A DNA stretch of 64,000 nt. Source: Argopecten irradians. Taxonomy: Eukaryota; Mollusca; Bivalvia; Pectinida; Pectinidae. Where the stretch lies: contig NC_091147.1 in NCBI RefSeq assembly GCF_041381155.1, forward strand, positions 36,439,053-36,503,052, given 5' to 3'. The notes below the pieces were generated by a model that was not told the origin of the DNA, did not search any database, and worked only from the letters and a program-made list of their open reading frames with translations. Of this stretch, positions 22,301-55,300 are shown one piece after another (position 1 is the first letter of the stretch; every line of letters begins with the position of its first letter). Made by a program: the position numbers and the translations under genes.

Positions 22301-25300
22301 TTGTGATAAACTCAGGTCTGCGCAGTAAATAAATTACAGCCGCAATATTAATAAAACCAAACATTCTCATTCGCTTAGAGGAATGATCAAAAATTTTATG
22401 TGTCTATTAAACTAGTTAAAGCAATAAACATATAAAATAATTTTCAAATGAAATGGGAATGTTTGTAAAACAACAGGAGAAAAGCAAATAATGTAAAATC
22501 AAAATCAATTAAAAAACAAAACGAAAAACAAAAACAACACAAAAACCTGAGCAATCGTATTGATATCAGTGATGGATTTTGATAACATTTTCCTTTTCTT
22601 ATGGTGGTTTTTTTATTAAAAAAAGATACAGGTCTGGTTGGTGGAAAAAAAAAATAAAATTATCAATACAAAAACTGCTGTAAATACTTATTTTAGCAGT
22701 TATTTTATTTATGTGCTTTTCACACTGTTTTTAAAGTGCTAATTCATGTACAATCATGCTAAATCGTAATGAAAAAGGACATAATAATTGAAAATATCAG
22801 AAAAAAGTTTTAATGCAGAAATGTGAGTGTTGTAATCATTTTTACAATGCAGGAAATAACAAAATAATAAAAGCATTGAGCATAAACAATTAAATCAGAC
22901 ATAATAATCTATATGTCAAAACAGAAATAGTGAGAAAAATTTTGATAAAATTTAATAAAATAAACACCATTGGTGCTGGAATTTAAATGACTGACCTTTA
23001 AATTTACTGAAGTCCAGTGACGTCTCTCGGATCGAAAAATCAGCCTGGAAGGGGGCGATTTGTTCCCGTAAAATCAAGAGATGTTTAATAATGAAGAGTT
23101 CCCCGTCTAAAACATTCTGGAAAGTGGAAAAGTCATCTGAATTAGGAATGAGTAATATATTGAAAATATAGGATCTTATTGATAAATAAGTGCTCATTTC
23201 ATATGAGACTTTAGGAAATGCGTCTAAGAGTTTAGATTTTTGTGTCCTATTGAAGATGCTCAGGCAGCGCATAAACGATACTCATCATTTGAACAATAAT
23301 TGGTGTTTAATTGTGTATATATGTCTAATTAACACATAAATAATATAAAGTAATTCATTTCGCTTTTGGTGCATGAGCAATCAGAACTTCATTCTATACA
23401 GGACATAGTTTCACCGAATTATTTTCGGGATTCAATGAATTTTTTTTAATTTTTTCATCTTAAAGTAAAATTTGAAGCTCAAAATTTTTCAATGGTGGTT
23501 AAAGTGTAAAGTAAGTAACTTTTGTAACTGAAGAAAAATACTTAATCGTCTGCACCTGTTTTTGATAGAGAGAAAAAAATATCATTCGTCAGCGTTGAAG
23601 TGCTCCTCATTTTTTCAACCAATTTTTAAGTACCCTTGGCGCTTTATATTAGATCGAACTATAAATGACTGCCTTTGACTGACCTTGCGTTTGGTGATGC
23701 CCTCCTTAGCATTCTGTAAACTATGTATACAAGACTGCAAAGCTTCCTGTGACAGACCTTGGAATGTGGTTTTCTGTGAATAAATATGTGAATACACATA
23801 TAGTCTAAATCATTCTGTTAATATATAGGGATTGAATGTATTTTTCTAATTTTCATAGCCGCTATGAATAGCAGAAGCTATCTACAGATCCTGTGGAGGA
23901 CTATTTTCTTATTGATATGAAACTGGCGTGATGTTTGAAATCAGCTGATCGATGCACGAGACGTTGTATTCATAGTGTATTCATAGTGTTTTCATAGGCA
24001 AATGTTTGTTTTTGTCAGTTGATTGATTCATAAAGTGACGAAACATTCAGAATGTAAATATACATACATGTATACAGTAAAGCTTATCAAAACTAGAACT
24101 TATTTAATCTGGATCCCTGTGTATTCTAGCATAAATATATAGTATTTTCCTTGTTAACTTATTGTAATAGAAACCTGTACAATCTGAAAACCTGGCTTTA
24201 CCGACTAAATATGCTGATCCCAATGACATAGACTAGATAAGCTACACTGTACACAGCAAGCCATTATAAATAATCATTTGTTGACTTAGAAACAGTAAAC
24301 AAAATACCATCTTAATACATAGAACCACACCTGTACTACTTTCATCTATTTAAGCATTAAACTATCTTCCTATGGCATCTATGGTCTATATAGATGCCAG
24401 AGCTTTGCAGACAATCATCTCATAATGCGCTAGCGCGCATTATGAAGATTGAAGAAATGAAGACTATGCCTTAGGAAGATAGTTTAATGCTTATATTTAC
24501 ATTATCAACTCATTTTAGGGTCTCTGCATTAACATTGTTTATGCTAGACCAGGAAAACCGTTTATCATCGACGATTTAATCCACAAGATGGAACAGTCAT
24601 TTTGACGGTGATCAGTTGACATCACCACGTCAACATGAGTGACGTCATAATGGTCATGTTTTGGGTGTCAGTTATACCATCATATACTTCACTTTGCCTT
24701 GGTTAGTTTATATAGTAGAAGTGACAAGTAAATGTAAATATACACCAATAGAGTTTAGACAATAGAGGTCACGTACGTATTACTTACATCTATGCACCTG
24801 TAGAGTTTAGACAATAGAGGTTATGTACATATTACTTCCATCTATACACCAATAGAGTTTAGACAATAGAGGTCACGTACATATTACTTCCATCTATACA
24901 CCAATAGAGTTTAGACAATAGAGGTCACGTATGTATTACTTACATCTATACACCAATAGAGTTTAGACAATAGAGGTCACGTACGTATTACTTACATCTA
25001 TACACCAATAGAGTTTAGACAATAGAGGTCACGTACGTATTACTTACATCTATACACCAATAGAGTTTAGACAATAGAGGTCACGTATGTATTACTTACA
25101 TCTATACACCAATAGAGTTTAGACAATAGAGGTCACGTACGTATTACTTACATCTATGCACCTGTAGAGTTTAGACAATAGAGGTCATGTACATATTACT
25201 TCCATCTATACACCAATAGAGTTTAGACAATAGAGGTCATGTACGTATTACTTCCATCTATACACCAATAGAGTTTAGACAATAGAGGTCACGTACGTAT

Positions 25301-28300
25301 TACTTCCATCTATACACCAATAGAGTTTAGACAATAGAGGTCACGTACGTATTACTTACATCTATGCACCTGTAGAGTTTAGACAAAGTGACCAGCGTCC
25401 GGCGTACAGTAGGGTACCACATACCATGGAGGTCAGCGGGAGAGAGCGGCATCGAGGTCCCTATAACAAAATGTGGTACATCAGTTACTTCGCCTAATTG
25501 AATGAAAATGAAGGATCAGCCGAAGGAAAGATGACTTAAAGCATACAAAAATGGAGTGTATGACGTTACTGACACTACAGCCACACAACACAAAAATAAT
25601 ATCCCCACTTAGATGCTTATGCAGTGTAGTGTTTTAAGTACTTAGAAATATATCCAAGATGTAGAGCCAACGCCTTTGTTGTATGACTGGTGGGTAAATG
25701 AGTCCGCCGTCCACCTGGGTACTCCGAGGTATGCAGGGAATCAAAAATAAGTAGGGGGAACTATGATTCAGGGGAGACAATCTCAATCGACAGCCTCCTG
25801 TCTGTGGAGACTGTCTCTTCTGATTCAAAGTACTTAAAACTATAGAAAGATATTCACAAGATGAAAGGCTTTTACAGCTAATAAATTCCAATGTACAATT
25901 ATTGACTTTCTGTAGGTTGAATATATTAAGGAATTGTTAACCTGAGAAAGGTGATAATCCTCAAAGTTGTAAAATGAGGGAGATATCAGGGCTGTTTTTG
26001 TTTATATGGAACAACCGGTTGGACCGTTGGTTAAAGTCATTACTTCAAGTATAAATCCTGACGGACCTACAGTTTATCAGTTTATAATACAGGCCTGTGA
26101 GGACTTTGTCAAGGCTCATCTGAAAACAATATAAAATCACCAGATCCATCTTTAATTCATAAACGAACAACTAGGTCCAATTAGTCAAACTGCATAACAA
26201 AACCGGCCCAGGTTTATAATTTCTTGAATTTACCTAAAAAATGTAGTTGTACTTATTTGTCAACTTGTGGAGTTTAAATTGGAACAGGAAAGACTGGAGG
26301 GAATTATGACCCAGGTTACCAGATTTGGAATTTGAGATATTCATCGCTTTTAAGTTGATATTGACTCTTGTCAATACCTTTACGGATGGTCTCAACCAAT
26401 CAGAAAACAGCAAGAATAACAAAATGTAATCACCAGGGGGATGCTGAGAATCTGCTCTCCTGCAGCCGTTGGCCCATATCCATAGTTCCAGTACATACCT
26501 TGAGGATGTTGAGGGTCTGCTCCCCCTGCCACCGGTGGCCCCATCTCTTGCTGTTCCCCTTCTGTAATTTGTGCTACCTCCAGACTGGTGTTGGAGACAT
26601 TTGACAATGACCTTTTATGACCTCCATCCCCCGAGGAAGTTGAAGACGTCCTGGACTTTTCCTGGCTGGTCTTTATACTCTCAGCTATACTCTGAAATAG
26701 GAAATTAAGAACATAGATTTAATCTCAAGCTATTATCACCTTAGTTGCATTTTTGACATCTCTCTTAGGAAAACTGAAATCAGTACTAAATATCTGGCCA
26801 ACTTAACTTCTTATCATAATGTCTGATTATTTTTTCACTAAAAATAAACATTATATGGTGAAATATATTTTTCATGTCATTTAATCACTCACAAAATTTC
26901 TGGAGGTTTTTGGGGTTTTTTTCCAATTTTTATTTTTTTTATTTTTATAGTTTAATAGTATCTGCAACTGTGTCACATAGGTTTCAAACTTTCAAGAGGC
27001 ATAATATTTTGGAACAATTCACCACTTGACCATGGAAGTTTATGATCACTGTATGTCTCCATGATTTCTTTAATATTAAATCTGAGGAAACATCTCTTAT
27101 GCTTACCAATCCAAGGATATCTGTTATCAACTTATTGTCTCCTTGCTTTAATTACATGGTCCAAGTTAAACAACCTTTTCTCTATAAAAGCTCTAATGCA
27201 CTTGCAATCAAAACAAACATGTAATTTTTCAATATTTTTTTAAATCAAAGTAGTTAACATTACCTCCATCATCTCCAGTTTTTCTGGGTAGGCCAAGTCG
27301 CCCTGGGCAGCGTTGTAGTTTAGGATGTCTGCTTTGATACAGATATATGTACGGTACACCAGTCGTTCCTGGACGTCCATTAACATCTGTCTACAGATCG
27401 TCTCAAACGCTCCCAGCTCCTGAACTGTAAATTAACGTTAAATATCAAACCTTAAATTACACAATTCTATTTTGTCAAAAATCATATTTAAGGATTGAAT
27501 CTTGCTTTGGTCGATTTCATGGGGTGATGAATTGAGTTGCTCTTGTTTTAAGAGCAACTCAATTCATCAATATTATTAATGTAATCAAGATGAAACATAA
27601 AACATATACAATAGATTTAGACGTGATTGCAAAAATGGTCCGCTGAAGATGCGGAAGGATCCAATGTATAGACTGTGTGATACAGTTGTCTCCAGCTTTG
27701 ATTCAAAATGGAGAGTCACCATATAACATGATGGGAACGGAAAGGTTTAGTGGTTTATGTAGACTTTAGCCTTGATACAACTTAAACAACTGATTAAAGG
27801 TAAATCAACACTCATTGACTTTTATATAGTATTTCTTATCGCTCTTTAGGCTTCACCATTAGATAGTAACTGAGAGGGCATAAAGTGGACTAGTTTCAAC
27901 ACACGTCTTCGGTAGGCAATGTTGCTCGACTCGAACGATACACAAGAATCAGTGAAACAAGAGTTCATAAAATGCTTTTAGAATTGCAGAAATCTGTACG
28001 ATATATTTACACTTTTTTTTTTAAATACCGCAGCTTAGATCTATGCCTAGACCTAGTAGGAACTTACGCCTTCTTAAGCAAAAGTAGGTCTAGATAAAAT
28101 ATTTTCTTGCGCCATGTTGATATACCCAAGTTCATGAGCAAATGAAACCGGATTTCTCAAGTATTTTCATTGAGTTCAACTTCAGTGAAGATTGAAATAT
28201 TTGCCTTTGATTTTAAGTTCACACAGGCATATTTTCTATAGATACCAAATTCAACCCAAGAAGCGCCCCCATCCCTAAAAAGGCTCCTCCCCTTTTTTGG

Positions 28301-31300
28301 AGCCTCAATTTCACTTTATGTATTGTGATTGTTATGCAGACTTGCAATTCTGACCTAATTACTTGCTTACCATTAGCTTGTACAGCAGATTACTTACAAT
28401 GATTGCTTACCATTATTTGTACATGCTCCTCCAACATCTAACAATGGATTGCACACCATGATTTTGTACATGCTCCTCCAACATCTAACATTGGATTGCT
28501 TACCATTATTTTGTACATGCTCCTCTAACATCTAACATTGGATTGCTTACCATTAATTTGTACATGCTCCTCCAACATCTAACATTGAATTGCTTACCAT
28601 TATTTTGTACATGCTCCTCCAACATCTAACACTGGATTGCTTACCATTATTTTGTACATGCTCCTCCAACATCTAACATTGGATTGCTTACCATTATTTT
28701 GTACATGCTCCTCCAACATCTAACATTGGATTGCTTACCATTATTTTGTACATGCTCCTCCAACATCTAACATTGGATTGCTTACCATTATTTTGTACAT
28801 CCTCCTCAAACATCTAACATTGGATTGCTTACCATTATTTTGTACATGCTCCTCCAACATCTAACATTGGATTGCTTACCATTATTTTGTACATGCTCCC
28901 CCAACATCTAACTCTGGATTGCTTACCATTAATTTGTAAATGCTTCTCCAACATCTAACATTGGATTGCTTACCATTATTTTGTACATGCTCCCCCAACA
29001 TCTAACCCTGGATTGCTTATCATTATTTTGTAAATGCTCCTCCAACATCTAACATTGGATTGCTTACCATTATTTTGTACATGCTCCCCCAACATCTAAC
29101 CCTGGATTGCTTATCATTATTTTGTACATGCTCCTCCAACATCTAACATTGGATTGCTTACCATTATTTTGTACATGCTCCTCCAACATCTCTATCTTCA
29201 GAATGGAACATAACTCAGCCAGCGTTTCTAAATGGTTGATGTGAATAATCAGCGGTCGGAACATGTCGTACAGACTGTTGCATAGATGTTCTAACATCTC
29301 ACTGAAACAAGAGAACTAAAAATGATAAAAAAAATGTGGTAAAGATGACACTAGTCAATGTCATCTATATGTACATTTAGATGACTCCATTCAACAACTT
29401 TAACGTGTTTTAAATAAAATTTCTCTAAAATAATAAGAACTTCAGCTGTAAGAAAAAATTAACACCAAAGCGAAATAAAAGTGACAGTTTGCGACTTTAA
29501 GCACTAGATCGATGCCCATGACTTGTAATTTAGAGCCGGACTAGTGCCAATTGTAATGAAGTAGTCCAATTGGACTAGTGGCTCCCAATTCGATTAATAA
29601 CGTTAATTCATTTACAAGAGCGGTGGTCAATTGCATTTTTCAACACATTTTGAGTGCATTCTTTATTCGATCATTTCAGTCCGGATGCATCATTTTGTGA
29701 GAATTTGTGTTCATGAAAGCATCTAGACTGCAATTTGGATAAAACTGATCATGACTGAATTTGAAGTGCTGAAGCAAAACGGCTGTACTGTATATTTAAT
29801 ATGGTCTAGTGATTAAATCGTCACACTAGAAAAATTTTGGGATTTACTAAATGACTAGCAGCAAAAAAAATTAGCGTCACAGACTGTAGTGAATTAAATC
29901 AAATGGGAACATCCTACATATAAATTCTAATGTTAATTCTTTCTTAACTTCTCAAAAATAAAAGTTTATTTAGTACTTGAACAGTAAAAATCAAAGGTCA
30001 AGACATCAAATAGAACCAGCACACAAGGTTTTGATAAACAGGATTAGAAGGCTGCATCATTCAACTTTTCAGTGACAATTTTTTTGAATTTTTTTTTATC
30101 AAAGTGAGGGATTAAGGCATGTCTCCTAAATTCTTTTTTGGGTGTAAAATCAACAGTTTATACATCATTTTAAAAATCTTCACTCAAGAATGCACCAGAA
30201 AAATGTGGAATTAGCTACTACTCACTCTAGTCGGGACGTCGGTTTGGAGAAGAAGTTAAAGTAAAGCTGATGTTCATCTTCACAGACATGGACCATAAAA
30301 GCACAGCCACTCCTCATCTGTAAAGACAAAAGTTTTTACTGAAAAAATACTGCATAAAAAACAAAACTAAAGCAATTACAGATCACTGGAATAGTTTTAG
30401 CATTGCAGCTGAACTTGGGTTATGTCTAAAATATGTCCACAAGAAGATACAAGTAGGCTATTTATATGGAAGAATAAGTACTGTTGGGTAGTGGTGACTA
30501 TTGCCTGTATTGGAATAGTATTGAATTCTTAATTCTATTCAATTCCACCTGATAAATTGGCCACCATGTCGTAAATCTATTGCATTGTTGGTTTGTTTGA
30601 GTTGCTTCCCTTTACCTGTTAGCGTGACTTTCAACTCAAACACAATGACGATGATTGCTTTTTGATTGAATAGCATGGAAAAAAGTGACATTTTATCGTG
30701 ACTGTTAGTCTGTTACTGTATCAAACTTCAGTGAGTACATCATTTTAGTCCAAGCTACAGAAAAATATCTGACAATTGAAACTATCACCAGTTTGGCGTC
30801 GTATCAGCAATTGTTATCGACTTGTTGAATTTCCCATCGATTAATTAAATTGAGAGGTATACAATGTATTGATAATCCCATGTATTGTCTTAACTTACAG
30901 TTGGGATACTTACAAGAGCACAGTGGTCGCGGGCGTGTTTAGTAGCCAGGTCGTTTACGGTGGACGAGACACTCGGACCAAGTAACACCTCTCTCTGTTG
31001 AAAGTAGCATTGATGACAGTCTGCTAATATCTGGACATACCTGTTAGAAGAAAAACAAGTGAATCTTACAAATGAGTTGGTATCACAGATAAGAGTATCT
31101 AATACACTAAAATTAAATGTAATAAAAAAACAAGCAAATTCGTGGAATTTCCATCCCCCGCTTTCAGGACATATTGTAGATAAACATTATTGAGGTTAGG
31201 TTTAACCTTGGTTGAAACATGAAAAAATAAACTGAAGTTTTATTCGGAAGTAAGATGTGTAAAATAATGACCCCTGTAAGTGACTATTAAACTTGGCTGA

Positions 31301-34300
31301 GCTCTTAAAGCATTTATCTTCGATACTAACTTTTAAGAAAATCGCTTTCATTTGTTACAATTATTACACAGGGAATGGCAGAAAAAGACGTTTTTAATAC
31401 ATCAAAGGGCCATAACTCTACTACATAATGTCGGCCAAAAGTGGCAATCAAACTTGGCCAAGCCCTTAAGGCATTTGACCTTGTTACCAATCGGTAAATA
31501 TTTATTACAGTTATTGTACTAAGTGGCAGAAAATGACTTTTTTTTATAAAAATCAAAGGGCCATAACTCTGCTGATTAAGATCTGCCAAAAGTGGCGATC
31601 AAATTTGGCTCAGCCCTTAAGGCATTTAAATTTGTTACCAAGTTTCAACAATATTAGTTTTAACATTTGTTAGTTATTACACAGAAACTGCAGAAAAATG
31701 AAATTTGTAGTAAATTAAAGGGCCATAACTCTGATAAATAACATCCGCTGACAGAGTTAATCGAACCTGGCCAAGTACTTAAGGCATTCAACCTTGTTCC
31801 TAAGTTTGAAGAAAATTGGTTAATATTCATTACAGTTATTGCATAAAAGTGGCAGACACTGACTTTTTTTTATTTAAGCAAAGGGCCATAACTCTGCTAA
31901 ATAAGGTCTGTTGAAAGTCGCGATCGAACTTGGCCGAGTCCTTAAGGCATTTAACCTTGTTACTAAGTTAGAAGAAAATCGGTCACATTTGTTACACTTA
32001 TTGCACAGAAATGGCAGAAAATGATGTTTTTAGTAATTCAAAGGGTCATAACTCCGCTAAATAAGGTCCATCGACAGTCGCAATTGAACTTGGCCGAGTC
32101 CTTAAAGCATTTAATCTTGTCACCAAGTTTGAAGAAAATTGGTTTACATTTATTACAGTTATTGCACGGAAACGAAGTGTGACAGACAGACGGACGGACA
32201 GATGGACAAACCCAAATTAATATCCCCTGTTTGGGAAAAAGTGGGGGATAAAAAGTTGTGGAGGGTGATTGTGAAAAGCTAGCAAAGGCATTTCCATTTT
32301 AATGTAATGGCAGAAACAATAATGCCAGTATGTGTCTATTTGTGTTAATATGTGTATGAGAAGCTAGCAGACATACAAAAGAATGGTTTCCAAAAAACTT
32401 TTGTTCCAACTGATATATAGAATATTTGTTTCCATCAGAAACTTTAGGATCACAGGTATTATAGAATTCTTGGAGGAAAGATTTTTTCCCACTTACTCTG
32501 GACTTTTATCCACCCTCTGTTCAAGTTCTTCCATCAGAGATTTCACACGCGGGGCGTTGGCACGAAACTTTCCATAGAACAAGGTAAAGGCGTTGTCCCC
32601 AATATTGACAGAGTCCTGAAATTATACAACATATAATAATTAAATCAATCACATATGAAAAATGGAGTGAGGGTAAAAATTGGGATTCAAACATGATGCT
32701 TATATATTTTAAAAGATAACTTCTACAAACTATTATTTATTCGAGCAGATACATGTATAAATTAGTGCAAGTCTGTGGTTCGATACCAGATATATAGAGG
32801 TTACGCAACGAGTGGTTGTTGGATATGGAATTTATTCCACACGAGTGAGTTATTTTTTAAAAATTACAAAATACAAGAGCTTTAGCAAGTGTCTTTTGTA
32901 ACTTTTAAAAAAATAACTTACGAGTGTGGAATAAATTCCATATCCAACAACCACGAGTCGTGTGACCTGTTTCTACCACAATAATATACGATTTTAGCCG
33001 ATAGAATTACGACGAGGATAAGTACGCAATCCAACAGCAGTTTTGGCGTCAAGCGACAATCACAGCATAGCATGACGTCACTCGATTATTGATGACGTTG
33101 ACAAAAGATGATACGACACTGAGAAAGACGTAGTTCGGTCAAAGTTCATCGTGCCAGCCAGTCAGTATGCGTACAGAGTTTATACCACGTGTGGTATATA
33201 CAAATTGTTAATAAACAGCTGCATTGTTTACTTGATACCCTGAGAGTTGAATAACAGCGCCTATTGTGGTAGAAACCCTTTTGCACAATTTAGCACTGTA
33301 TATAAATAGGTCCTTCAAAGACAGCGCAAAAAGTTCTAAAATAAACCTACCGCTAAAATAAGTATGTTTGTATGCAGTATATGATGAAACTTGATTTCTT
33401 CCATATCCTAAATTCTGCAACATTCATCATTACCTATGATCCAATGAAATCCAGTAAAAGACATTTGCACGCTACCCATATTGTACTTTACACAATATTC
33501 ATTGCAAAAATTAAGTATCTATGTACCATTAAATGCAAGTACTACAATGAAGCATCATTTGGTTAAGTCATAATGAGAATTGTAAGTTAAGGGGAGATAA
33601 TTACACCAAACTAAGACATGTTAACCCTACCGATTTATGCGAAAAAATTTTCTCATTTGAAGCCGATCTAATGCCTTCCCGTTTAATATCCAAATTGTCC
33701 TCTTTCTGGAAAACATTGTTTTTTCTTTTGATTTTTCAATAGTGATTCAGGGTTGCCATGGCAAATTCAAAATGCATTACAGAGGGGCACTGGCATGGTA
33801 ATTAAGTATACAAAAATTACTACATGTAAACAATAATACTAAGTCTTTGAATACCTGTATTTAATAATTGACCTTTACTGACCTTTGTGGGTTGGACCTG
33901 TTGTGTAGCCATTTGTAAAATGTGTACAACATGACATTTTATCAGGTTTAAAGCCCGAGCCAGGCAATGTCTAAACTTGGCAAGGTAAATAGCAGATTCC
34001 TTACAGGGGGCCTGAAAATACAAGATCATCAACAACTAAAATATAAATTCAAACCTAAGTGCCCATATCCCTTTTAGCGCCCCTTTCCCTTTTTGAGGCC
34101 TTCATTTCTTTTACCTCAAATGATATGTACACTGAAAATATGAAAACTGTGTAGGTTTCTTCATTTTTCTTTCTTTCGCTAATTGATTATTGTTTACTTT
34201 ATGGAATAATCTTTGATAATAATGATTCTTTATAATTATTCTCTTTCAAAGATTTTTATAGTATGCTAATTACTTATATGTAAGATTTACCAGTAATTAT

Positions 34301-37300
34301 AGAACTTTAATCATTTTGAGCTATCAATAATGACAAAGTTTCAATTGATTGTCTCCAACATGGCTCTGGATCAATAGACAGCAGTCCTAACACTAATTCA
34401 AATCATTATCAATTATGACAAGGTACTGGGTATAGTAGGTCAGTGATTTTTTTCCAAAAACTCTGACTTTCTCCATAAAACATTATAACAGATGACGTGT
34501 AAATTCTACTCACATTGCTGGAGATATACAATATACACTCATCCAGCCTGGACAACATTGGAACAAAGGACTCATTGGTAACAGTTAGAGTCGGGGAACC
34601 AAGTTTCTGAAACAAAATAGAGTTAATATAAATTTAACAGCAACCAATAATGAAAATATTCTGAATCCAAATATTTGGAAAAATGATGAATATCTAGTTC
34701 CTGTACCCTGTATACGTAATATTGTGTGTATATGATAGAAATAAACCATGCTCAATTAGTTTGAATGCTTACTCATCACGTAATAACAATATTGCAAAAA
34801 AAGACACATGCAAACCATGAAATAAAACTCTCGTAGAAATAGTCATATGTGTGTAACCCTGAAACTTTATATTATAATGCACTCTTCCAGCCTTTGAATC
34901 GAATGCGTTTTCAGGGGTGAATGAGTGAAATCAACTTCACAGCATTTAGATGTCATGATTTCTTATTCCAATAAAATTGAATCGCACATGAAAATAATTT
35001 GGTTTATATATATATTGATAGGTCACTTACTGAAGATATACGGTCCAGCTCATTGAAGTAAGACAATTTGTTACTGATGTTTTCAGCTGTGTTGATGAGT
35101 CGTGTCTGCAAATGAAAGAAATAAAATGTTATGTAGCGGAATTGGACTGTGCCAATCATAGCCATGCACCAATTAGCTCAATTTGTTCAGCATTTGGTTA
35201 AGTGTTCAGAGGTCCTGAGTTCAAACCCCAGCTTGGTCGCTACATTTTCTCCTTTTTCTGTTTACAGTAATTATGTTCAAGTTATGATTAAGTAGATAAA
35301 GACATGGGTTATGCTATGAATGGGTATAAAATGGTATTAAGTATTATTGCCATGCCTATCTTTGTTTTATAAATCCTACATTTTAGATGCTTTTAATATC
35401 CATCTCTTATCATTTTGTGGATCAAACTACTGGAAAGTATAGTGCAGGGTATAGCATCACATCACCTAGTTCTAAATGTGCTAAAGACAGAATCATATTC
35501 CTAAAAAAAGGGTGATCAATTCAAAACAGCATAACCTGTCTTAACGGCCCTTGTCTAATCAAGATTAGGGCTGGATCAATATATCGATATACCGATACGT
35601 ATCGGTTTTCCGCAGTGTATCGAATATCGATACACAAACATGCTGTATATTGCTGTATTGTTTTAACAACTCATCCAACTGTTTTCGTTATAGACATAGG
35701 AAATTCCAAACAAAATTTATTCTAAAACATCATTCAAGTAACAGCATTTCAATCAAAAGAAAGTGTTTAATGCATCTGTGTCACCTAGATGGATTAGAAA
35801 TGCCTTTTCATAACTAAGAATACGAATTGACAGAAATTAATTAACACAGATGATAAACTCAATCAAATGTTTGGTAGATTTTTTCCTGGTTATAGAATAT
35901 TTTATCAAAATTGTCTTTTATTGTCACAATATTCGAAATACAAGGGTCAACTGAATTTGAAAAAGAGGTCCACTGTATTGATCGTCAATACGTATCGTGT
36001 ATTGTTTCAGTGTATTGTCAATACATATCGTATCGTTTTAGACCTTCCAATACCCAGCCCTAATCAAGATACCTATCTATCCTGGCTTAAATGTATGGCA
36101 TTTTTCTTCTTAATTTACAATAATTAAATATTGTATTATCAATCGAATATGCTGGTCTCAGTGATAATATACTCAGGAAATATTCTTCCTGGTAATATTT
36201 TCCATTGACAATGAAGTAGAAATACATGGGTGATCAGGTGGTGTAGTGCTTAAGTCACTCGCTTTCACCTAGCTAGCCGGGGTTTGATCCCCCGCACAGA
36301 CTAAAAAGGTTAGGGGGTCAGCTGCATGATCATGTTGGTTTTCTCCGGGCACTCAGGTTTCCTCCCACACTGAAAGCCCTCGCGCACTTACATCCGGGCC
36401 ACCGATAGTGATTTACTTAAGTTGTATAACTTGTTTCGTAATCGATGTAAAATAAATAAAGTTTATATTAAATACACGGTCAAATGTCATTTAGAGTTGT
36501 GAATTCTTTTTAGCTATATATTATATGATAATGTTGTACCTGTTCAGCCAGCAAATGTTCGCAGGCATCATGGAGAGCGTTTGTCTTTGTAGATACGTGG
36601 ATGTAGTGAGCCTGGAGACTGCGTAGGTAATCCAGAGCTGTCCCTACCTCCTCCAGGACAGAATCACACTGTTTCTGGTACTCTCTCAACTCCTCAATGT
36701 AACGCCTGTGGTAACGACGTAACAGAGCACATCATTTTATTATGTAGTGTAGTTGGTAATATTTGTGTGGGTGGGGGGGTTAATATGTAGTGTAGTTGGT
36801 AATATTTGTGTGTGTGGGGGAGGGGGAGGTGGTATACAATGCTGATGTCAGAAGCATCTCTTGTTGTAAAACATCGTTAAATTTAACTTCCATCAATCTG
36901 AGGGGTGCTAATTAATTACAGCGAATACAAATTATATAAGTCACCCTTACCAGCTATCTCTATCAAGGTTAATTAGAATATACATCTAATATATCTCTTA
37001 ACTACTTATGGTTAGTGACAAATTGTTAGTCTCACCTGTATGGAATTTCCTCATCTTTTTCAATATCTTCTTCAACAGTGGAAAACCAGCAGAAAAACTA
37101 AAACAATCAACACATTTTACTGTATTACAGTTTTGTGATCCTCATTTACAGTTTCAGATTTTCAGTGTATTTTTTTTCGAAACAAAATTATGCGGATTGA
37201 CCCATATTGGTCTGTTTCTAGATCTTTTTAGTTATTTAAAGTGAACAGTCGGGCAAGGATGGTTAAAGTCGGTAAAATGGTGTGAATGTATCCATTATAA

Positions 37301-40300
37301 TTTCTTATGAAATAGAAAAATAAAATCTCTCGTCAAAATCTGTCTGCGTACGAAGAAATTAATTTAAAGTATGGAAATTCTAAAACGTCCTCCCGGCTCA
37401 CTATGTCCGTGGTTACATTTCCACGCAGCCTCGCTTTCAACTTTTCTGTACTTTAATGGTCAGAACTGGGAAACTAAGCAGAACTTGACCGTCGTATTAA
37501 TATGTGAGAACTTTTGGAAGGCCAATGAACGCATTTAGACTGGTTTTCTTTTCCCGACTATTCACTTTAATTTACAAGTTTAAACTTGTATAATTAGAAG
37601 ACCTGAGTTATTTCATTCGAAACAAAAGACTAAAGTCAATATTCAATCACTTGTAGGGTTACCATGGTCATAACTAAATTGCTTGTTTGATATTTAAGAT
37701 CAATAAATTAATTTGAATACTTAGATATCTCTTAAGTGCCATTGATGTGACCATGGTCCCTAAGGCCAAACAAAAAAATATTTGTGTTTCCGGTAACCCG
37801 ACCAACCCTATAAGTATCAGTGCCTTCTCAATAACTTTTTATTAGTTTTGTCCTCAAGCAGACAAATAACAACCTGAATTTTGTTTGTTTTTTCACAAAA
37901 TCCAGAATTTTGGTACAAATTCTGTAAATCTAAGACACCAATAGTCTCCTGGGAATCAAATCAATGGTTTATATAAGGTTGAATAAAGTCTACTTCAGTT
38001 TTTTACTGCAAGACTGGGATGATGAGAAAAAAATATTTAAAAATAAAAAAAAATCCCTATCTGCCGACCCTTCATTTTAAAAGGGTGTTACCAGAAACAA
38101 GAATATTGTTTTATTTGGCCTCATCAACAAGTTCTGACTATCAGGATTTACATAAACATTTAACACTGCCAAGGGTCATACTCAGGACCTCTGGGTAATT
38201 ATGAAGTATTTTTACAGTGAAAGTAGCATGCAGTATTACCTGTTGAGCTGTATCTATCTTTTCCTTGTCATTTGATAAGGCTACTTCCTTCGTTTCCTGA
38301 GAATCAGAGACCAGCCGGGAAGGAGCATTTTTGGACATCGAACACGGAATATCATCTTCTGGGAGCTAATGAAACAGCAACAAAACATCATGTCAAAAAA
38401 ACAGCTGTTGTGTCTGTTGTTATTTTCAACACATGATATGATTTCCTGACTTGAACAAATATAATACATACTTTATATTTATATTTATCCAACACAATCA
38501 ACTCTGTATAAAATACATCTGTCTTTTTTTCAAAATGATACGTTATATGCTAAAAACAGTACAGTGCATTTGCAGAATAGGTCTAAGTGAAAACTGTGTC
38601 AAAGCACACCCCGGTATTCGATACCCCACCCCTCATATTCTAATTATTTGTTAGATGTACACGGATTATGACAATCAACTGACAATCATAATTAACTTAC
38701 ATTATATATAATAATAATAATAACTAGAAATTGTCACCGGGACAATTTGACGGGCTTTTCACCTAAAAGCTACTTCGTTCATGGTCATTTATAAAACACT
38801 CGGTAACGCTTAGTTTCAACGTACCAAAAGTCCAATACCAGGTCTTAGGCCTTTCAGAACTTTACAATAAGTCATTTGAAGACTTTAGGATTGTTAGCCT
38901 GAGTGCCCTTTGATATAGGTCAAGGTCAATCACATTAACAAACTTGGTAGGCATTTATGTCAGCATGCTTCATGCTTAATATTAGGTCTCTAGGCCTTCT
39001 AGAAATTGAGAAGATTTTTTTTAATGATTTTGTCGAAAAATTGCATTTTTGAACTTTGTCCCTTATTTCCAACCGGAAGTTGACGTTTAACAGAAAAATG
39101 ATACAAAACTAATTGTTTCATTTTTGATTCTACATAACATATCCAAAAATGAAAGTAATTGGCTGTGTGGTTAACGAGCTACGGCTGTCTCAATGAGCTG
39201 AATTTTCACAGGATTATTTTCATAACTCTACAATCACACGCACTCTGTGACCTTGGATGACGGTCAAGCTCGTTTATTTTTTCAAACCCGATAGTCAACT
39301 ACCTAAGCTTACTTCATGCAAATCATGAAGCCTCTATACTATGTAGAACTTGACAAGAAGATTTTTTTCGTGATTTTCACCGAAAATGGCGAATTTCCAT
39401 TATGAGTCAATGATCATTCGGAAGTTGACATTTTAGAGAAAAATGTACAATTACAAAGTTTCTCAGTATGCTATTCTACATAACATACAAAAACATGAAA
39501 GGAATTGGCTCAGTGGTTAACGAGTTATGGATGTCTCTAGGTTAAACCGGAAGTGCCGTCATTGCGGCCATATTTGAATTTGAATCAACACCATATTAAC
39601 AAGAATTGGTCACGGTGACAAGTGGAAGATTTGTAGTGCGTTTGGGCTTGATTGCACTGGTGGAATCAGAGGAGATGTTTAAAATATAATTGTCGAAATT
39701 TGAAAAAAAAATCTTAGTTAAAATATTAATTACGTCATAAAAAATTATTTAGTGGACTAATTTTTAATTTGAAGACATCAAAGCCTTCAGAATGAGATAC
39801 TGCATCGATGCAATGGAAAAAATTTGGAAAAAAATTGAATAATAAAAAAAAATTCTAAAAATAGTCACTTTTTTGTAAACTTTGACCTCTAGCGAGCTTT
39901 TTAACAAGACATATTTTGTGGAAACATGTCATGGGTAAAAGTTAGATATGTTCATTCCCTACAATAAAATACCTTCAGATTTGCAATAGCTTTCATATTT
40001 TTTGAGTTAAAGCAGTTTTTGTGGTTTTAAGGTTTTACGTCATGGCGGCCATTTTGGAAATTTTTGACCTACTTAATTTTGTTCATGGAACACCTTCAGA
40101 TGTTTGGTTAAAACATACTGAAATCATTTTTAACCTGTGTGTTACCGTTTGACCGAGAGAGCGTTCACAAAAACAGGAAGAAGAATAATAAGAATAATAA
40201 TAATAAGAAGAATAAGAAACTTAACGAAAACAATAGGTCTTTTCACCAAAAAGTGAAAAGCCCTAAAAATACTGTAAGAGGTATCTTCATAATTCGAATT

Positions 40301-46065: not shown

Positions 46066-46310
46066 GCTGTATGGTTGTCACGTCGCTATGACAACATTGA
46101 TGTCATGTTGCTATGACTATATTGATGTCATGTTGCTATGACAATACTGAGCTCATACTGCTAGGACTACATTGATGTTATGTTGCTATGACAACACTGA
46201 TGTCATGTCGCTAGGACTACATTGATGTCATGCTGTTCTGACTACATTAATGTCATGTTGCTATGAAATCCCTGATGTCATATCGCTATGACAACACTGA
46301 TGCTAGAACT
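46066..46310 (-). repeat. 25-bp minisatellite including the PCID2 stop codon
   Basis: About nine units of ATTGATGTCATGTTGCTATGACAAC on the plus strand. The right-most unit holds the last codons of PCID2 and its TAG (46286-46288). The rest form the start of the 3' UTR. Confidence 0.87.
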
Positions 46311-46378
46311 GGGAATGCATTTTGCTTGCTGACCACAAGTTTCTGGTGTTGATGAGAAATGTAGCCCTTGATCTTGTT
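46286..46378 (-). CDS. PCID2: PCID2 exon 15 (stop)
   Basis: [20 protein letters not shown] then [10 protein letters not shown] and TAG. The winged-helix end of the PCI module. The last codons fall inside the 25-bp array. Confidence 0.96.
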
Positions 46379-49300
46379 CTGAAATTTAAAAATAAGAAAT
46401 TAAGTGTAAATACACATAACAATTGATTTGTTGGTGAAAATGTGAACTACCATAATACCTGTCCCGGCTGCACAAATTTAAAATAACTCCATTAATAGGG
46501 GACATTGCAGAACCCTATATAATTTATTCCATTCCTCTTTATATCAGGGTTCTGTGTACCAAATTTTATCAAAATCTGTCAGGTAGTTTAGGCAGAGTTC
46601 GTCGGACAATGTTGTGTCTACAGATCTAGACAGACAGACAGATGGACAGACGGACAACCAGATTCCAGTACACGTCCCTTAACTTCGTATAATAAGTCTA
46701 ATGTGTACATTTTAGAAAATGATAGATGAAAATCATGAAATTACAGTACATCATACATCATCTATGATTCAGGAATTACTGAGAACATGGATTATAATTT
46801 TGATCTTGGAGCCAATGCAACAGTAAGTTAGCATCAGTGCACTGTACATAAATTTCTGGCAATTACATGTGTATCCTCAATGATTAAGAAGTTATGGTCT
46901 GAACAAAAGCAAAAGAAAAATGGTTAAAAATGGAATGAAAACACTTACTTCATAGATGAGGTTTGCTATGATACATGAAGTCTCGTCGTCATCAATATCC
47001 GTCACCTGTAACCAAAAATTAAAATTTCTCACTATGAAATCAGGAAAATTGGGTCCCTAAGACTATTCATTATCATTCCAAGTTTGTTGAATGTTCATGT
47101 GTGAATATATTAGAGGAGATTGAGTGAAAGCTAAATAAGTGAACATTTCATTGCAAAAAATATAATCCAATGTTAACAATGGGTATAAGATGGAAAAGCC
47201 TGCATTGATTAAAGGAATCTATATAGCTCAGCCCACAATCTGATGTCAGATGTGTGGGGGGGAGGGGGGTTAAAATTTTAAAGAGTACAGATATAGTGAT
47301 CTTGGATAATTCGGATGTCGACAGTCCAGAAAACTCACAATCCGAATTAAAGTATCAGGGAACAGATGTGATTTTTGACAAATGCAACATTTCACAATCC
47401 AGACAGCTTAGGCTAGGAAAGCAAGTGTTCGGAATATCTAGGGTGCGCTGTACAAAGTTTGCAAGGCCTAAGTAGGCAATAAGTGATCAGAGACTTACTT
47501 CCATCAATCTGAGGGCTGCAGTGAAGGCCTTTACTGGTATCTGATGTGTGTTGAGGAGCAAATAACTGTAACAACAATCACATCAACCTGAGTTCTAATA
47601 AGGTATGTAGTCTGATCAGTACTTAACTGATACATGAATTTTGAGACGTAACTTGGACCATTACAAATAAAGTAATCTTATTGAGATCTTACAATATGAA
47701 CATACTTATTTTAATGCAGTAAAATTTTAACGCAAATGTGAAAAAAATGTAAAGTATGATTCATTAACGCTGATATAAATTAGCGCAATTCGGTGGTTCA
47801 ATAGCATTTTACAAAATTTAGCGCTGTTCATGTATTAGCGCTTCGAAGAGAGTGTTAAAATAAAAGTACCGCAAAAATAATTAGGTTTACAGTATGTGTC
47901 TGAACATCTGATCTTATGTTCACATGTCGATCTGTATAGAAATGCAATATCCAGTCCTAAGTCTTAAAAGATTTGTCAAGAGATACCAGTAAAGTAAATA
48001 CAAACTATTACAATATATAAATGGACCAATGGATTTCCGCTAAAATAAGATGGGAAAAATCAAAGCTAAAATTTCAGTGTTTTTTTTCCAGACAGAAACC
48101 TAATCATGTGTGGAGGTCATTGAGATTCCCATCGACAGAAGATCTCACATTGTTATTCAAATACCCTGAACTTGATGTTCAATGACAACTTTAAGAGATA
48201 AAATGTCTGAACTTACATTTTCTTAAACAAATTTCTATATGTGATAATTTTGAGTTTCTCCAGGATAAGGAAAATGCCACACTTGATAAAGAAGGCTTCA
48301 TTCTTCTCCAGAGCTTCATTCAGGAGTAACAGGTTCCCAGAACTGTAACAGAAGACAATGAATACTGTAATCCAACTTATTTTGATATTCTAACTACTCT
48401 GCGAATATTTTGACCAGCCAAAATGGCTACTGTATACCAACTTTCCTTCGCAAAATTTGCAGTCCAAGTCAATTGGTGAAAGTTATCTCCGTGAATTAAC
48501 ATCTGCATCAATGATACTGATTGGAATTTCTATTCAATTTTTGAATTCATGAATGCTAATCTTCGTAAAATTGTTTTGAAATGGAAATCGTGAAATTTAG
48601 AAGTCGGGAAAGAAAGCAGGTTTTCAGCATACGATAATAAAGTTTTTATATTAACTTTCACAATTTCTTATCATAAATGTTCAAGTATACTGATGATTAT
48701 TCTGTAGATAGAAGAGTAATAAAGGGCCTGTAATGCTCTGTTAGAATTTATTAAGAATGCTGACCTGATACGTACCTAACAGCTTTAGCTACGTCGTAGA
48801 ACTGCATCAAATCATACTTCTGGAGCAGGGATTGTTTTGGCATGTGACCCTGAATGGTTAACGCAGTATAAACAATGCGTCATCAATCCAACATTCAAAT
48901 TAAAATAAATATGTATCATCAATGTGTTCGTCTATCAAATCTTAACAAGCATAACCTAGACCTGTAAACTAGCGGTGTGTGGATACACCCATACTACAAC
49001 AATGACCAATAGGTTTGTAAAATTTGGACCTATGCCCTTATATGGAATGAAGTACTGATTGTGCATGCACTTAAAGCAAATGTAACTATTTAATATGTAT
49101 TTTGTGCTAATTAGACACAGATATATACAAAGAAACATCAGTTAAACGATGAGTATCATTTATGCTCTGTCGGCGGTGGAGCATCTATAAATTGACAATT
49201 CAATAAAGTCTGTAATAACCATGTAACCTACCAATAACATTTTAACAGGTAACAGGTATATCAAGGTCATCCTTTTATTTTTCCTGCTGGCTCGATGGCA

Positions 49301-52300
49301 GCGCTCAAAGGCATAGGAGAGGAATTCATCAGCTGTAAAGATAAGGGTAGATAACTGTAGATACGGGTACATCACTGCATATAAGGAAAACTGAGATAAG
49401 GGTAGATAACTGTAGATAAGGGTAGATAACTGAGATAATGGTAGATAACGGTAGATAACTGAGATAAGGGTAGATAACTGTAGATAACTGAGATAAGGGT
49501 AGATAACTGTAGATAACTGAGATAAGGGTAGATAACTGTAGATAAGGGTAGATAACTGTAGATAAGGGTAGATAACTGAGATAATGGTAGATAACTGTAG
49601 ATAACTGAGATAAGGGTAGATAACTGTAGATAACTGAGATAAGGGTAGATAACTGTAGATAAGGGTAGATAACTGTAGATAAGGCTATAGATAACTGAGA
49701 TAAAGGTAGATAAATGCAGATAAGGATAGATAACTGAGATAAGGATAGATAACTGAGATAAGGATAGATAACTATAGATAAAGGTAGATAACTGTAGATA
49801 AGGGTATGTAGATAACTGAGATGAGGGTAGATAACTGAGATAAGGATAGATAACTATAGATAAAGGTAGATAACTGTAGATAAGGGTAGATAACTGAGAT
49901 AAGGGTAGATAACTGAGATAAGGATAGATAACTATAGATAAAGGTAGATAACTGTAGATAAGGGTATGTAGATAACTGAGATAAGGGTAGATAACTGAGA
50001 TAAGGGTAGATAACTGAGATAAGGGTAGATAACTGTAGATAAGGCTATAGATAACTGAGATAAAGGTAGATAAATGCAGATAAGGATAGATAACTGAGAT
50101 AAGGATAGATAACTGAGATAAGGATAGATAACTATAGATAAAGGTAGATAACTGTAGATAAGGGTAGATAACTGAGATAAGGGTAGATAACTGAGATAAG
50201 GGTAGCTAATTGGATAAGGGTAGATAACTGTAGATAAGGGTAAGATTGTTGTACTTAAGAACAATTAATTGATGGAATTTTTATTAAATTAGAAATTAAT
50301 GAATTTAATGCACTATAATGTAATTGATAATGGTATACAAAATCAAAACAAAAACTTTCCTCGAAGGGATTGCCTTGACTTACCACTCTTGAAATCACTA
50401 TCAAACATCGCTTTTCTTCCCACATAATATCTACAATAAAGATTATCACAAGTTTTTAGTTGACATCTCGTAGTAGTGTTACAATGTATAATGCATCCAT
50501 AAGCAGACTGCATGGTCAAGGTATTTATATCAACAAAACTGGTCAAGGTATTTATATCAACAAAACTTGTCTATTCTTTCATAAAATACCAATTATCCAA
50601 TTATAGATCTGTAAGGCCTTTCAATGTTCAAGGAGTCATTTTATAGTTATTTTGACTTTGGCTGAAGTTGGCTATTAAAATTAATTTGTTTTGACAAGCA
50701 AAGTAGCCTTTCATCATACCACTGCTGCAGATCCACTATCTCATGATAAAAAAACATTTCCAGTGTGAATTAAGTCTTGATGCTACGTACCAAATGATAA
50801 ACAGACCAAAGAGGAAAGACAGAGTATGTGTTGTGAGTACCAGTTGCCCTTTGAGTGATTAATGAGTAGATTGAATGTTAACTTGTCCTACAGGGATATT
50901 TCCATACCTGTATGTAACCTGCTGGGAGAGAGGGAACCGGTCCTTGATAGGTAAACTGTCAATAGCCCTCACCAATGGCTTGCATAAATGGAGCTTGTTA
51001 ATCTGAAAACAAGTACAGGTACAACTTCTGAATCCAGACCATGAGTAACAGATATCCAATTTTTTCATAATCGATGTAAAATAAATAAAGTTTAAATTTA
51101 ATCTAATTCCGCTCCACTGCAATGCTCTACAATAGTTTACTCCAATACAAGATCCAACAACTCTCCATACCAGGTCACCTCAGCATGACCCCTGGCCTGA
51201 ATCTGAACATCTCTGGACAAACTAATAGCCGTTTCCAGGAGAATCAAGCACACTAATGATTTCATTGGCTACCCATAGGGGTCCTGAGTGACCCAAAATG
51301 GGGAGTTGTAAGATTTTTATATTGGAGTGTATAGTAGAGCATTGTAGAGAGTGTTATTCTTGTCCGCAAAACTAAACTTGTATTGGCCTTTAGAGTAAAA
51401 CACATTAAACTCTTTTCTGTTTCTCTCTCCCTTCTGGTTAGGGCATAGATTGTGTCATAATTACTTTGTGAACAAAATTTACATCCTTTTCTCTGAAAAA
51501 TGTGACGTTACATTCATTACTAGAACTGTCGCCAGAGTGAATGACTAATACCCCCTGCTGCACAAATTTAGTAATACCGCCATTAATAAAGTACATTGCA
51601 GAACCCTATATAATTTACTCAACTTCCTTTTATGTCAGGGTTCTGTGTACCAAATTTCATCAAAATCTGTCGAGTAGTTTAGGAGGAGTTTGCCGGATAA
51701 AATTGTGTCTACAGACAGACAGACAAACAACCCTATTCAAGTATAACCCCCTTTAACTTCGTTCTGGGTGTATAAAAACATTAATAACAAATCAGTACCT
51801 ATCCGCAAGGGAAGATTACTCTGTAACATGCAAAGACAGAATATCTTTGCTATATCATCATGCTCTACTTGTTAACCAAGTGGTTGATGTCGGAAATATA
51901 AAACGGCTACAAGTATGTCCCAAAATTTCCCAATTCAAGGTCAGGAGTCATGCCAACTGGCTAACAAGATTTACCTTAAAATACACTTTAAACAACTGGT
52001 TAACGATACCCACCTTAAAATATATCTTACTTAAATAGCTGGTTATTGAGATTTACTTTAAAATATATTTCAAACAACTGGCTAATGAAATTCACCCTAA
52101 AATATATCTTACTTAAACAGCTGGCTAACAAGATTTACCTTAAAATAATTTTTTTAAATAACTGGTTAACAAGATTTACCTTAAAATATATTTTAAATAA
52201 CTGCTTAATGAGATTTACCTTAAAATACATCTTAAACAACTGGTTAACGAGATTTACCATAAAATACATCTTAAACAACTGGCTAACAAGATTTACCTTA

Positions 52301-55300
52301 AAATATATTTTAAATAACTGCTTAATGAGATTTACCTTAAAATACATCTTAAACAACTGGTTAACGAGATTTACCATAAAATACATCTTAAACAACTGGC
52401 TAACTAGATTCACCCTAAAATATATCTTACTTAAACAGCTGGTTAATGAGATTTACCTTAAAATACATCTTAAACAACTGCTTAATGAGATTTACCTTAA
52501 AATACATCTTAAACAACTGGCTAACGAGATTCACCCTAAAATACATCTTACTTTAACAGCTGGTTCATGAGATTTACCTTAAAATATATTTTAAATAACT
52601 GGTAAACGAGATTTACCTTAAAATATATTTTACACAACTGGCTAACGAGATTCACCCTAAAATATATCTTACTTAAAAACTGGCAAACGAGATTTACCTT
52701 AAAATATATTTTAAATAACTGGTTAACGAGATTCAGCATCCCCCACTTCTTTGTGTCCTCAACAGAAGCTCGGCTGTAAACGAGAACAGAAATATTATAT
52801 GTATACAGTGCAACTTGTCTAAACAGGATGTCATCAGAACCAGCATAATTTGGCCGGTATAGACAGGTTTTTATATTATACAGGTTTGAATCATTATAAT
52901 AAGAAGCAGTGATTTTTTTACTCAATAATTTCAGGGGCCTGACTTTTTAAATCAGGAAAAATTTACATAGTACTTTTTTTGAGATATGTATATATATGAG
53001 AGCTTTTCTTTATTTGGGAAAATATTACATAAAATTTGGAAAATATAGCAAAATTTCTCTAGGGGAAGGGACCTTTATTCGGCCCCAAATGTACCTGAAA
53101 AAATCACTGTTCAGAAAATAATGCCAAACAATAACATTGGTGATGTAGTGGATTTTTTATAACAGATTTGCATGTGATGGATTTTTAATGAAGATTGGGA
53201 TAAGTCATGTGATAAATTTTAATGAAGACATGATGAGTTTTTAATGACGATTAGCGAGTAGTGAACTTTTAATGAAAATTGGTGATATAATGGATTTTAA
53301 TAAAGATTTGTGATGTGATGAAATTTTCATGGAAACGTGATGAATTTTAATGAATATTGTTGATGTGATGAATTTTTAATGAAGATTGGTGATGTGATGA
53401 ACTTTAAATGATGGTCCGCAACATGATGATTTTTATGAGGCTTTATGTTTTGATGAACTTTTAGAAACATGATGATTTTTTACTGAAGTTTGGTGATGTA
53501 TATTTAATGAAGATTGATAATGAAATGAACTATAAATAGACACATGACAATTTTTAATGAAGATTGGAATAAGTCATGTGATAAATTTTAATGAAAACAT
53601 GACAAGTTTTTAATGGAAATTGGTGATGTGATGAAATTTTAATGGAAACCTGATGAATTTTAATGAAGATTGGTGGGTGGTGAACTTTTAATGAAAGTTG
53701 GTGATGTGATGAATTTTAATGAACAATGTTTATGTGATGAATATTTAATGAAGCTTGATGTTGTGATAAACTACTGTATATTTAAATTGAAGATTAGAGA
53801 TTTTTAATGAAGATTGGTGATGTGATCAATTTTCCATGGAGACTGGTACCGGTGTGTAATAAGTTTTTAATGAATATGTGTGTGATGAACTTTTTATAAA
53901 GATTGGCATGTGATGAATTTCTAATGAAGATTTTTAATGAATATGTGTGTTATGAAGACACTTACTTGTCACTGGCACAGACTCTGAAACACGACATTAG
54001 AAGTTCAGCTGCCTTCTCCAACCTCTCGCCAGGCTTTCCTTTTCCTTTTTTCGCAGCCTGAAGGTCTGCCTGAATTTAAAAAAAAGTTTCATTACATTAC
54101 AGAGTTATCTGCCCTTGCAAGTTGGTATTTAACTATATATTTTCCAGAGAAAACGACATAATTTTCACACATAAAATAATGACGTCACAATTAGATACCT
54201 ACCAGCAAGGGAGGTTATTATGTTACTGTAATTTGCAAACTCAGAAAACAATGGAAAAGAAAAGCACTATATACTGGTACTTTACTTTATAATAGTCATT
54301 ATACCGCAATTCATACAAGTCATATTACCATATTTTCTGAAAAATAAGTCGCACCTGTGTATAAGTCGCAAAGGCCTTTTTTACGTTTTTTTCAGTTTTC
54401 ATAACTAAACTGGCAAGTAAAACTTACAATTTTCACATTAGAATCATGATGTAATAATGCAAAAACATTGTCAGATTTTAGCTTTCATCCTCGGATAAGT
54501 CGCACTGGTGTATAAGTTGCACTCCCGATTTTCAGGGGAAAAAGTCGTGACTTATACTCCGGAAAATATGGTATTTATATGTACAGTGTATATAATTTGA
54601 TCAAATAGAAATTATATTGATTGCTTCAATGATGAAACTTATCTCTGTGAGAAGGGTGGGTCAGTGTGCTTTGTATATACAGTAGTGTTAAATACAGTCT
54701 CCGTCACTCAGCTGACTGAGCTACTTCCATAACATGCATATGCATATTACTTTAAAACATGTGAATACTTTGAGTTTTACTGTATCATACGATACACAGT
54801 ACTTACGCTGTTGGCAAACAGCCTGAGGTCAAGGCAGACAGAAAACATAATGGAAAGAGGCCAGTTTTCTTCCTTAATGCTTTGGAACATTTTCACAAAA
54901 GCTGTGGTTTTGTTAAGAAAATATAATTGAAGAATTCCAAAAAAGTCGTTATAAACTTATGTAAAAGACAAATTGAATACAACTCTACCTACCTTCTGCA
55001 TGCATACGCAGTCTGTGACAATAACTTTTTTCCATGCTAGTCCTTTGGACTAGTAAACCTCAAAGTTTTACCAGTCCGGCTATTTTAACACTAGTGGAAA
55101 TTCTAACACTAGTGGAAATTCTAACAAAATGATGCATCTGGACTGAAATAATCGCATACAGAATGCACTAAGAATGTATAATAAAAAAAAAGAAATTGAC
55201 CACTGCAGTATTTTATAATGATTTTAATTGGGCGGGAAGCCACAGGTACTAGTCCAATTGGACTAGTTCATTACAATTAGCACTAGTCCGGCCATAAAAT

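What the first reader, a model, noticed from the sequence alone, without database searches (positions are those of the whole stretch)
24740..52740. Minisatellites seeded from exon ends and 5' splice sites recur across two genes
Four neighbouring arrays or duplications (COG3 exons 11, 13, 14; PCID2 exon 7) have units that are not arbitrary intron sequence. Each unit contains the last part of the adjacent exon, the donor site and a few intron bases, and sits directly downstream of that exon. Having this four times in about 35 exons looks more than chance. It suggests a process that starts tandem duplication at exon-intron junctions, or selection for extra donor sites.
Basis: partly seen in the sequence, partly recalled or inferred. 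Interest (0 to 1): 0.85.

Follow-up and report, generated by a model that had tools for sequence, protein, structure and literature searches.

The report
Intron minisatellites seeded at exon edges
Several short-repeat arrays in this animal genome are tandem copies of an exon's edge plus its splice site, piled up inside the neighbouring intron; the same kind is known from lancelets as "mirages", and here it may be commoner at splice donors than chance predicts.

Summary
Three arrays (COG3 exons 11 and 14, one PCID2 exon) are tandem copies of the last 27-36 exon bases, the donor and some intron, starting in the exon and running into the intron. The COG3 exon 13 'duplication' is weak. In COG3 only the exon-proximal donor keeps the reading frame.

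It is neither donor-only nor a new kind. Among 136 other exons of this genome I found three donor arrays and two acceptor arrays, plus one two-copy acceptor duplication. The kind is published from amphioxus as "mirages".

"More than chance" is partly supported. Random seeding predicts about 1.4 arrays per side in 136 exons; I saw 3 at donors (P 0.17). The window's 3 of 26 is a post hoc high. A genome-wide count without annotation favours donors: AGGTAAGT three times at array spacing occurs 7,647 times and AGGTATGT 9,258, against 974-4,846 for five control words; an acceptor word (4,289) lies within the control range.

Most likely: near-neutral junction-spanning minisatellites, tolerated because the exon-proximal site still wins, with a modest unexplained donor excess. 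Selection for spare donors has little support.

The parts
28401..29191 (-). 47 bp x 16.9 array: last 30 bases of COG3 exon 11 + 17 intron bases beginning GTAAGCAATC, starting in the exon and running into the intron
   Evidence: TRF; junction; class donor; unit alignment
29162..29301 (-). COG3 exon 11 (home exon of the 47 bp array)
   Evidence: splice sites; Pfam match of the joined exons; frame test
24739..25386 (-). 52 bp x 12.5 array: last 27 bases of COG3 exon 14 + 25 intron bases beginning GTAAGT
   Evidence: TRF; GT lost in 5 of 12 copies
25360..25460 (-). COG3 exon 14
51954..52733 (-). 39 bp array (about 20 copies): last 36 bases of a PCID2 exon + GTA
   Evidence: TRF
52698..52773 (-). 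PCID2 exon ending NQLFKIYFK (home exon of the 39 bp array)
   Evidence: ungapped match to human PCID2 across this junction
26439..26475 (-). possible second, diverged copy of the COG3 exon 13 end (weak)
   Evidence: local score 33, P 0.006 per random position
26499..26691 (-). COG3 exon 13
   Evidence: of the two donors only the one after 26499 is in frame with exon 14
49339..50242 (-). 10/19/29 bp array of TTATCTACAG-like units that ends 6 bases before a PCID2 exon start (acceptor side, no exon bases in the unit)
   Evidence: TRF (class abut-acc)
49232..49332 (-). PCID2 exon whose acceptor the previous array abuts

Best explanation
These are 'mirage'-type minisatellites. A short tandem duplication (unit about 20-60 bp) happened to span an exon-intron junction. 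The new copies can pile up only on the intron side, because the edge copy belongs to the exon and is held by selection. The copies then multiplied and diverged like any minisatellite. Splicing still uses the exon-proximal donor (or acceptor), probably because the site nearest the exon's other splice site wins (exon definition), so the array is nearly neutral. Beyond that, donors seem to carry such arrays moderately more often than composition-matched sequence; the cause of the excess is open (a start or retention bias at transcribed junctions is the leading guess). Shown: the anatomy, the frame test, occurrence at both junction types and in other genes, the genome-wide word counts. Inferred: neutrality, use of the exon-proximal site, how copies arise, and that the word excess comes from exon junctions.
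For: Units contain exon end + donor + intron and start in the exon. Same anatomy elsewhere: dynein C7 22 bp x79, dynein C1 44 bp x2.3, a glutamate-receptor exon 58 bp x3.3, and C1:2890660 (41 bp, over 6 kb) starting at an exon-like end. Acceptor side: dynein C14 53 bp x12 and a predicted gene 42 bp x31. In COG3 exons 11, 13 and 14 only the first donor (among sites within 3 bits of it) is in frame before a stop, and none of 11 and 29 upstream acceptor-like sites in the two acceptor arrays is in frame and open. Human PCID2 aligns without a gap across the array junction. Triple-word counts: donors 7,647 and 9,258; controls 974, 2,005, 2,028, 3,653, 4,846; AGGTAAGT singles 52,563 vs 45,462 for its reversed control. 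Published amphioxus cases report undisturbed splicing (PMC3087553, PMC3902484, passages read).
Against: The independent exon sample alone shows no significant donor excess (3 vs 1.4, P 0.17; at the lower TRF cut-off 4 vs 1.51, P 0.067, but the fourth, L040, is not a duplication). A donor-score test on 51 local arrays was null: 4 of 51 below P 0.05. Word counts are per copy and heavy-tailed; the reversed control of AGGTAAGT was the lowest of five; only two word pairs were normalised by genome-wide singles; the acceptor word lies inside the control range. Of two listed donor-word arrays whose edge I fetched, one had no exon there. A rough comparison of array numbers was not significant (P 0.058). 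No RNA data, no related species.
Confidence: 0.7

Rival explanations
1. Pure chance seeding with a selective filter: tandem duplications start anywhere, those inside exons are removed, those across junctions survive because the exon-proximal site still works. No bias towards junctions; the window is a lucky cluster.
For: Independent sample: 3 donor and 2 acceptor arrays in 136 exons against about 1.4 each. 75 arrays cover 30 kb of the 264-kb block, so overlaps are expected. The donor-score test on 51 arrays is null.
Against: Two donor words lie in triple spacing 2.8 and 3.4 times as often as the mean of five control words and more often than any of them. Window and sample together: 6 donors vs 1.77 expected, P 0.01, but this includes the window that prompted the test.
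Confidence: 0.25
2. Selection for extra donor sites: spare copies of the donor make splicing of that exon more robust and are kept for it.
For: Many copies keep a donor-like site: 15 in the exon 11 array and 23 in the PCID2 array score within 3 bits of the true one, counting it. All 19 PCID2 copies keep GT although the unit varies at 9.7% on average; in the predicted-gene acceptor array the splice-site columns vary least (0.9% vs 3.3% overall).
Against: GT varies more than the unit average in both COG3 arrays (2 of 17 and 5 of 12 copies without it). Inner donors in COG3 would shift the frame or meet a stop. Acceptors are duplicated too.
Confidence: 0.06
3. The arrays are partly coding: alternative splicing into in-frame copies lengthens the protein.
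For: The PCID2 unit is 39 bp and 4 donors (the true one included) are in frame before the first stop; 23 are in the dynein C7 array.
Against: The COG3 units (47, 52 bp) are not multiples of three; PCID2 aligns to human PCID2 with no insertion at the junction when the first donor is used.
Confidence: 0.05
4. Assembly artefact.
For: Long arrays are hard to assemble; no reads were available.
Against: Copies carry scattered differences (TRF matches 79-94% for the three arrays), and the anatomy recurs in unrelated genes on other contigs.
Confidence: 0.02

Closest known systems
Amphioxus 'mirages' (Adh3, globins BflGb6 and BflGb9, TnC; similar imperfect repeats in PGBD5)
   Same: Minisatellite-like tandem duplications of an intron-exon boundary, at both 5' and 3' boundaries, units 10-72 bp (Adh3) to 150-160 bp (BflGb6), said not to disturb splicing (PMC3087553, PMC3902484; passages read)
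   Different: Reported there gene by gene in amphioxus. Here the genome is another one (about 35% GC in the window, 846 Mb; I take it for a bivalve, untested), and a genome-wide word count was made.
Intron gain by tandem duplication of AGGT segments (Rogers model; potato RdRp case)
   Same: Tandem duplication of a segment with a splice signal, one case crossing an intron-exon boundary (PMC4974935, passages read)
   Different: There a new intron arises; here, as far as one genome can tell, an existing intron grows.
Dual-specific splice sites in tandem repeats (human UBC)
   Same: Splice signals repeated in the units of a tandem array (PMC10809524, passages read)
   Different: There the repeats are coding and a site serves as both donor and acceptor.

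Membership tests
mirage minisatellite | tandem units span an exon-intron boundary | tested here: met
   27-36 exon bases + donor in the three window arrays
mirage minisatellite | both 5' and 3' boundaries can be affected | tested here: met
   donor and acceptor arrays in the same genome
mirage minisatellite | does not disturb normal splicing | not testable with these tools
   no RNA data; the frame test and the PCID2 alignment agree with it
mirage minisatellite | copy-number polymorphism or somatic instability | not testable with these tools
   one assembly, no reads; a two-unit probe of the COG3 exon 11 array matched only its own place
intron gain by AGGT duplication | a new intron absent from relatives | not testable with these tools
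   no orthologous introns of related species were available
dual-specific splice sites | same site used as donor and acceptor | not testable with these tools
   no transcript data

The most novel reading that the evidence does not exclude
Splice donors are a preferred starting point of minisatellites in this genome: a process tied to transcription or splicing starts tandem duplication at donors genome-wide, giving perhaps on the order of a thousand donor-bearing arrays (a rough guess from capped listings of the first few Mb of C1).
Probability: 0.3. Interest if true: 0.75.

Novelty: new member of a known kind. Interest (0 to 1): 0.42.

Why it matters
If junction arrays are this common, introns here grow in part from their own exon edges, every such gene carries a ladder of spare splice sites (raw material for intron gain or sliding), and exon definition can be tested in nature: the cell must pick one of up to about 80 near-identical donors. 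A true start bias at donors would tie splicing or transcription to DNA duplication.

Tried and rejected
Counting TRF row L040 538-581 as a donor array: dropped, because the stretch is dynein coding sequence shared with the paralogues L030 and L038, not a duplication. Counting COG3 exon 13: kept apart as weak. A donor/acceptor score test on 51 local arrays: null (donors 4 of 51, acceptors 3 of 51 below P 0.05). PDB search with the joined exons of flank gene A and with COG3: no match. Pfam gives no match for gene A, so its exons are predictions only, nor for the PCID2 piece. The genome was not available as a file, so no full exon scan was possible. The dynein plan of about 900 exons shrank to 103 because letters were limited. 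In one search my junction for the dynein C7 array was one base off, so its GT was not scored. Papers: PMC117041 (the Adh3 mirage paper) is not held, so it is known only through citing passages. Searches with mollusc words (bivalve, 68 scallop, 93 oyster) listed nothing on the subject, nor did (no mollusc word); some searches gave the papers cited. 'Not reported in molluscs' rests on these alone. Two more word counts (AGGTGAGT, TTTGCAGG) did not complete.
Full report
What is in the window. The two genes lie on the minus strand. COG3 was rebuilt as 16 exons (22996-42166; the 3' end not found) and confirmed by Pfam COG3_N and COG3_C. PCID2 was rebuilt as 10 exons (48217-58318; neither end found) and confirmed by an ungapped alignment to human PCID2. 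The donor of the PCID2 exon at 57166 is uncertain. TRF finds three arrays that begin inside an exon and run into the following intron: 28401-29191, 24739-25386 and 51954-52733. Their units hold 30, 27 and 36 exon bases plus the donor. The fourth case, COG3 exon 13, is a single diverged match of 38 columns whose score is reached by 0.6% of 4,000 random non-array positions.

Which splice site is used. Reading on from COG3 exons 11, 13 and 14, only the exon-proximal donor, among sites within 3 bits of it, is in frame before a stop. The PCID2 array offers four such donors including the true one, and the dynein C7 array 23. Human PCID2 aligns across the PCID2 junction with no insertion. In the two acceptor arrays none of the 11 and 29 upstream acceptor-like sites is in frame and open. 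Conservation of the splice site across copies is mixed. GT is missing in 2 of 17 copies at exon 11 and 5 of 12 at exon 14, more variable than the unit average (3.3% and 3.6%). It is kept in all 19 scored PCID2 copies, where the unit average is 9.7%. The AG is kept in 12 of 12 copies (C14) and 30 of 31 (predicted gene).

Independent sample. I fetched 100 kb on each side of the window (the right side starts with a 17.5-kb run of N) and 65 kb of dynein heavy-chain regions located by a Pfam search, without regard to arrays. Exons came from a small splice-site and codon model. I kept by hand 103 dynein exons with recognisable dynein sequence and 33 left-flank exons: 20 of a predicted gene with no Pfam match, 4 lipase, 3 transporter, 3 glutamate receptor, 3 DUF7886 (for the families). 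Two exon ends (L036, L041) were set by hand. Left out: the right flank, other weak or antisense predictions, and one predicted exon at -38981 that lies wholly inside a 146-bp array. Among the 136, TRF arrays span a donor in four cases; one (L040) is conserved coding sequence and was dropped. The three real ones are L041 (22 bp x79), L043 (44 bp x2.3) and the glutamate receptor exon (58 bp x3.3). Two arrays span an acceptor: L042 (53 bp x12) and the predicted gene at -31544 (42 bp x31). A further acceptor, of the exon at -34218, shows a two-copy duplication that TRF did not list. Two arrays in this sample (L043, L046), and one in PCID2 in the window, end 5-7 bases from an exon start.

Chance. 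If tandem duplications start anywhere in gene space and survive only outside exons, the expected number of arrays spanning a donor is unit length x array density x number of donors. That is 0.34 in the window (3 seen, P 0.005, post hoc) and 1.4 in the independent sample (3 seen, P 0.17; acceptors 2, P 0.41; TRF score 100 or more). At score 50 or more the sample gives 4 donors, L040 included, against 1.51 (P 0.067). Window and sample donor rates, 3 of 26 and 3 of 136, differ at P 0.053. So exon sampling alone supports at most a mild excess (observed over expected 2.1, interval 0.4-6.3).

Genome-wide count without annotation. I counted three copies of an eight-base word at spacings of 15-45 over the whole 846 Mb. 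AGGTAAGT gives 7,647 and AGGTATGT 9,258. Control words give 974 (TGAATGGA), 2,005 and 4,846 (GATAGTGA and its reverse), 2,028 (GGACATTT) and 3,653 (TGTATGGA). The acceptor word TTTACAGG gives 4,289, inside the control range. With spacing 42-55 AGGTAAGT gives 4,372 against 591. Singles are close: 52,563 against 45,462 for AGGTAAGT, 46,169 against 49,763 for TTTACAGG; the other words' singles were not counted genome-wide. The mean over all 560 rearrangements of AGGTAAGT in the 312 kb held, scaled up, is about 1,600. So the donor words stand about 3-fold above the control mean; AGGTAAGT is 6.8-fold and TTTACAGG 2.3-fold above its own reversed control after dividing by singles. In a 51-array local sample a donor-score test was null, so most arrays are not of this kind.

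These are copy counts, and arrays run from a few to over 100 copies. The listings, capped at 100 rows and apparently giving forward hits first within a stretch, allow only a rough array count: two donor arrays in the first 2.9 Mb of C1 and six at the longer spacing in 6.5 Mb, against eight control arrays in 69.4 Mb and six in 34.5 Mb. The AGGTATGT total leans on a few large arrays: about seven in 27 Mb. The first donor-control comparison is not significant (P 0.058).

Are those donor-word arrays at exons? C1:2890660 starts at an open frame ending KELTKQKGRINWFMFYFYRFWR at GTAAGT (I read it as an acyltransferase-like exon; not tested). C1:1099220 shows no exon.

Reading. The anatomy is that of the 'mirages' of amphioxus: minisatellite-like duplications of intron-exon boundaries, at both ends, not disturbing splicing, of unstable length (PMC3087553 and PMC3902484, passages read). 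I take these arrays as the same kind of thing in another genome. The simplest mechanism is chance tandem duplication across the junction, growth on the intron side only, and continued use of the exon-proximal site. The donor-word excess suggests something more, at modest strength: arrays may start or persist more often at donors. A bias of arrays towards genes would raise donors and acceptors alike, and might explain part of it.

What would change this. A full exon annotation of the assembly with one count per array would settle the excess; long-read RNA would settle site use.

Noticed in passing
left flank -27435..-23523 and L042 1320-1785: A 157-bp tandem unit with a short exon-like stretch (AG|GGG...GAG|GTAAAT, reading GQEGRGPIGEIE or close) recurs in introns of two unrelated genes 16 Mb apart on C14, so some arrays are dispersed families rather than home-grown.
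   Followed up: no
49339-50242: A 10/19/29 bp array of TTATCTACAG-like units ends 6 bases before a PCID2 exon; L043 1-382 and the short L046 796-833 also end 5-7 bases before an exon.
   Followed up: partly
62879-64000: A 179-bp satellite-like array runs to the right edge of the window; the 17.5 kb after it read N.
   Followed up: no
31289-32167: A 162/323 bp repeat with AAAGGGCCATAACTC in a COG3 intron, which looks like a dispersed element.
   Followed up: no
C669:5740-7972 and C3:9463961-9466047: Very similar dynein matches on a small contig and on C3 suggest an unplaced haplotype copy, useful for array length polymorphism.
   Followed up: no
C1:2890660-2897056: A 41-bp donor-bearing array of more than 6 kb, starting at an exon-like end.
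   Followed up: partly
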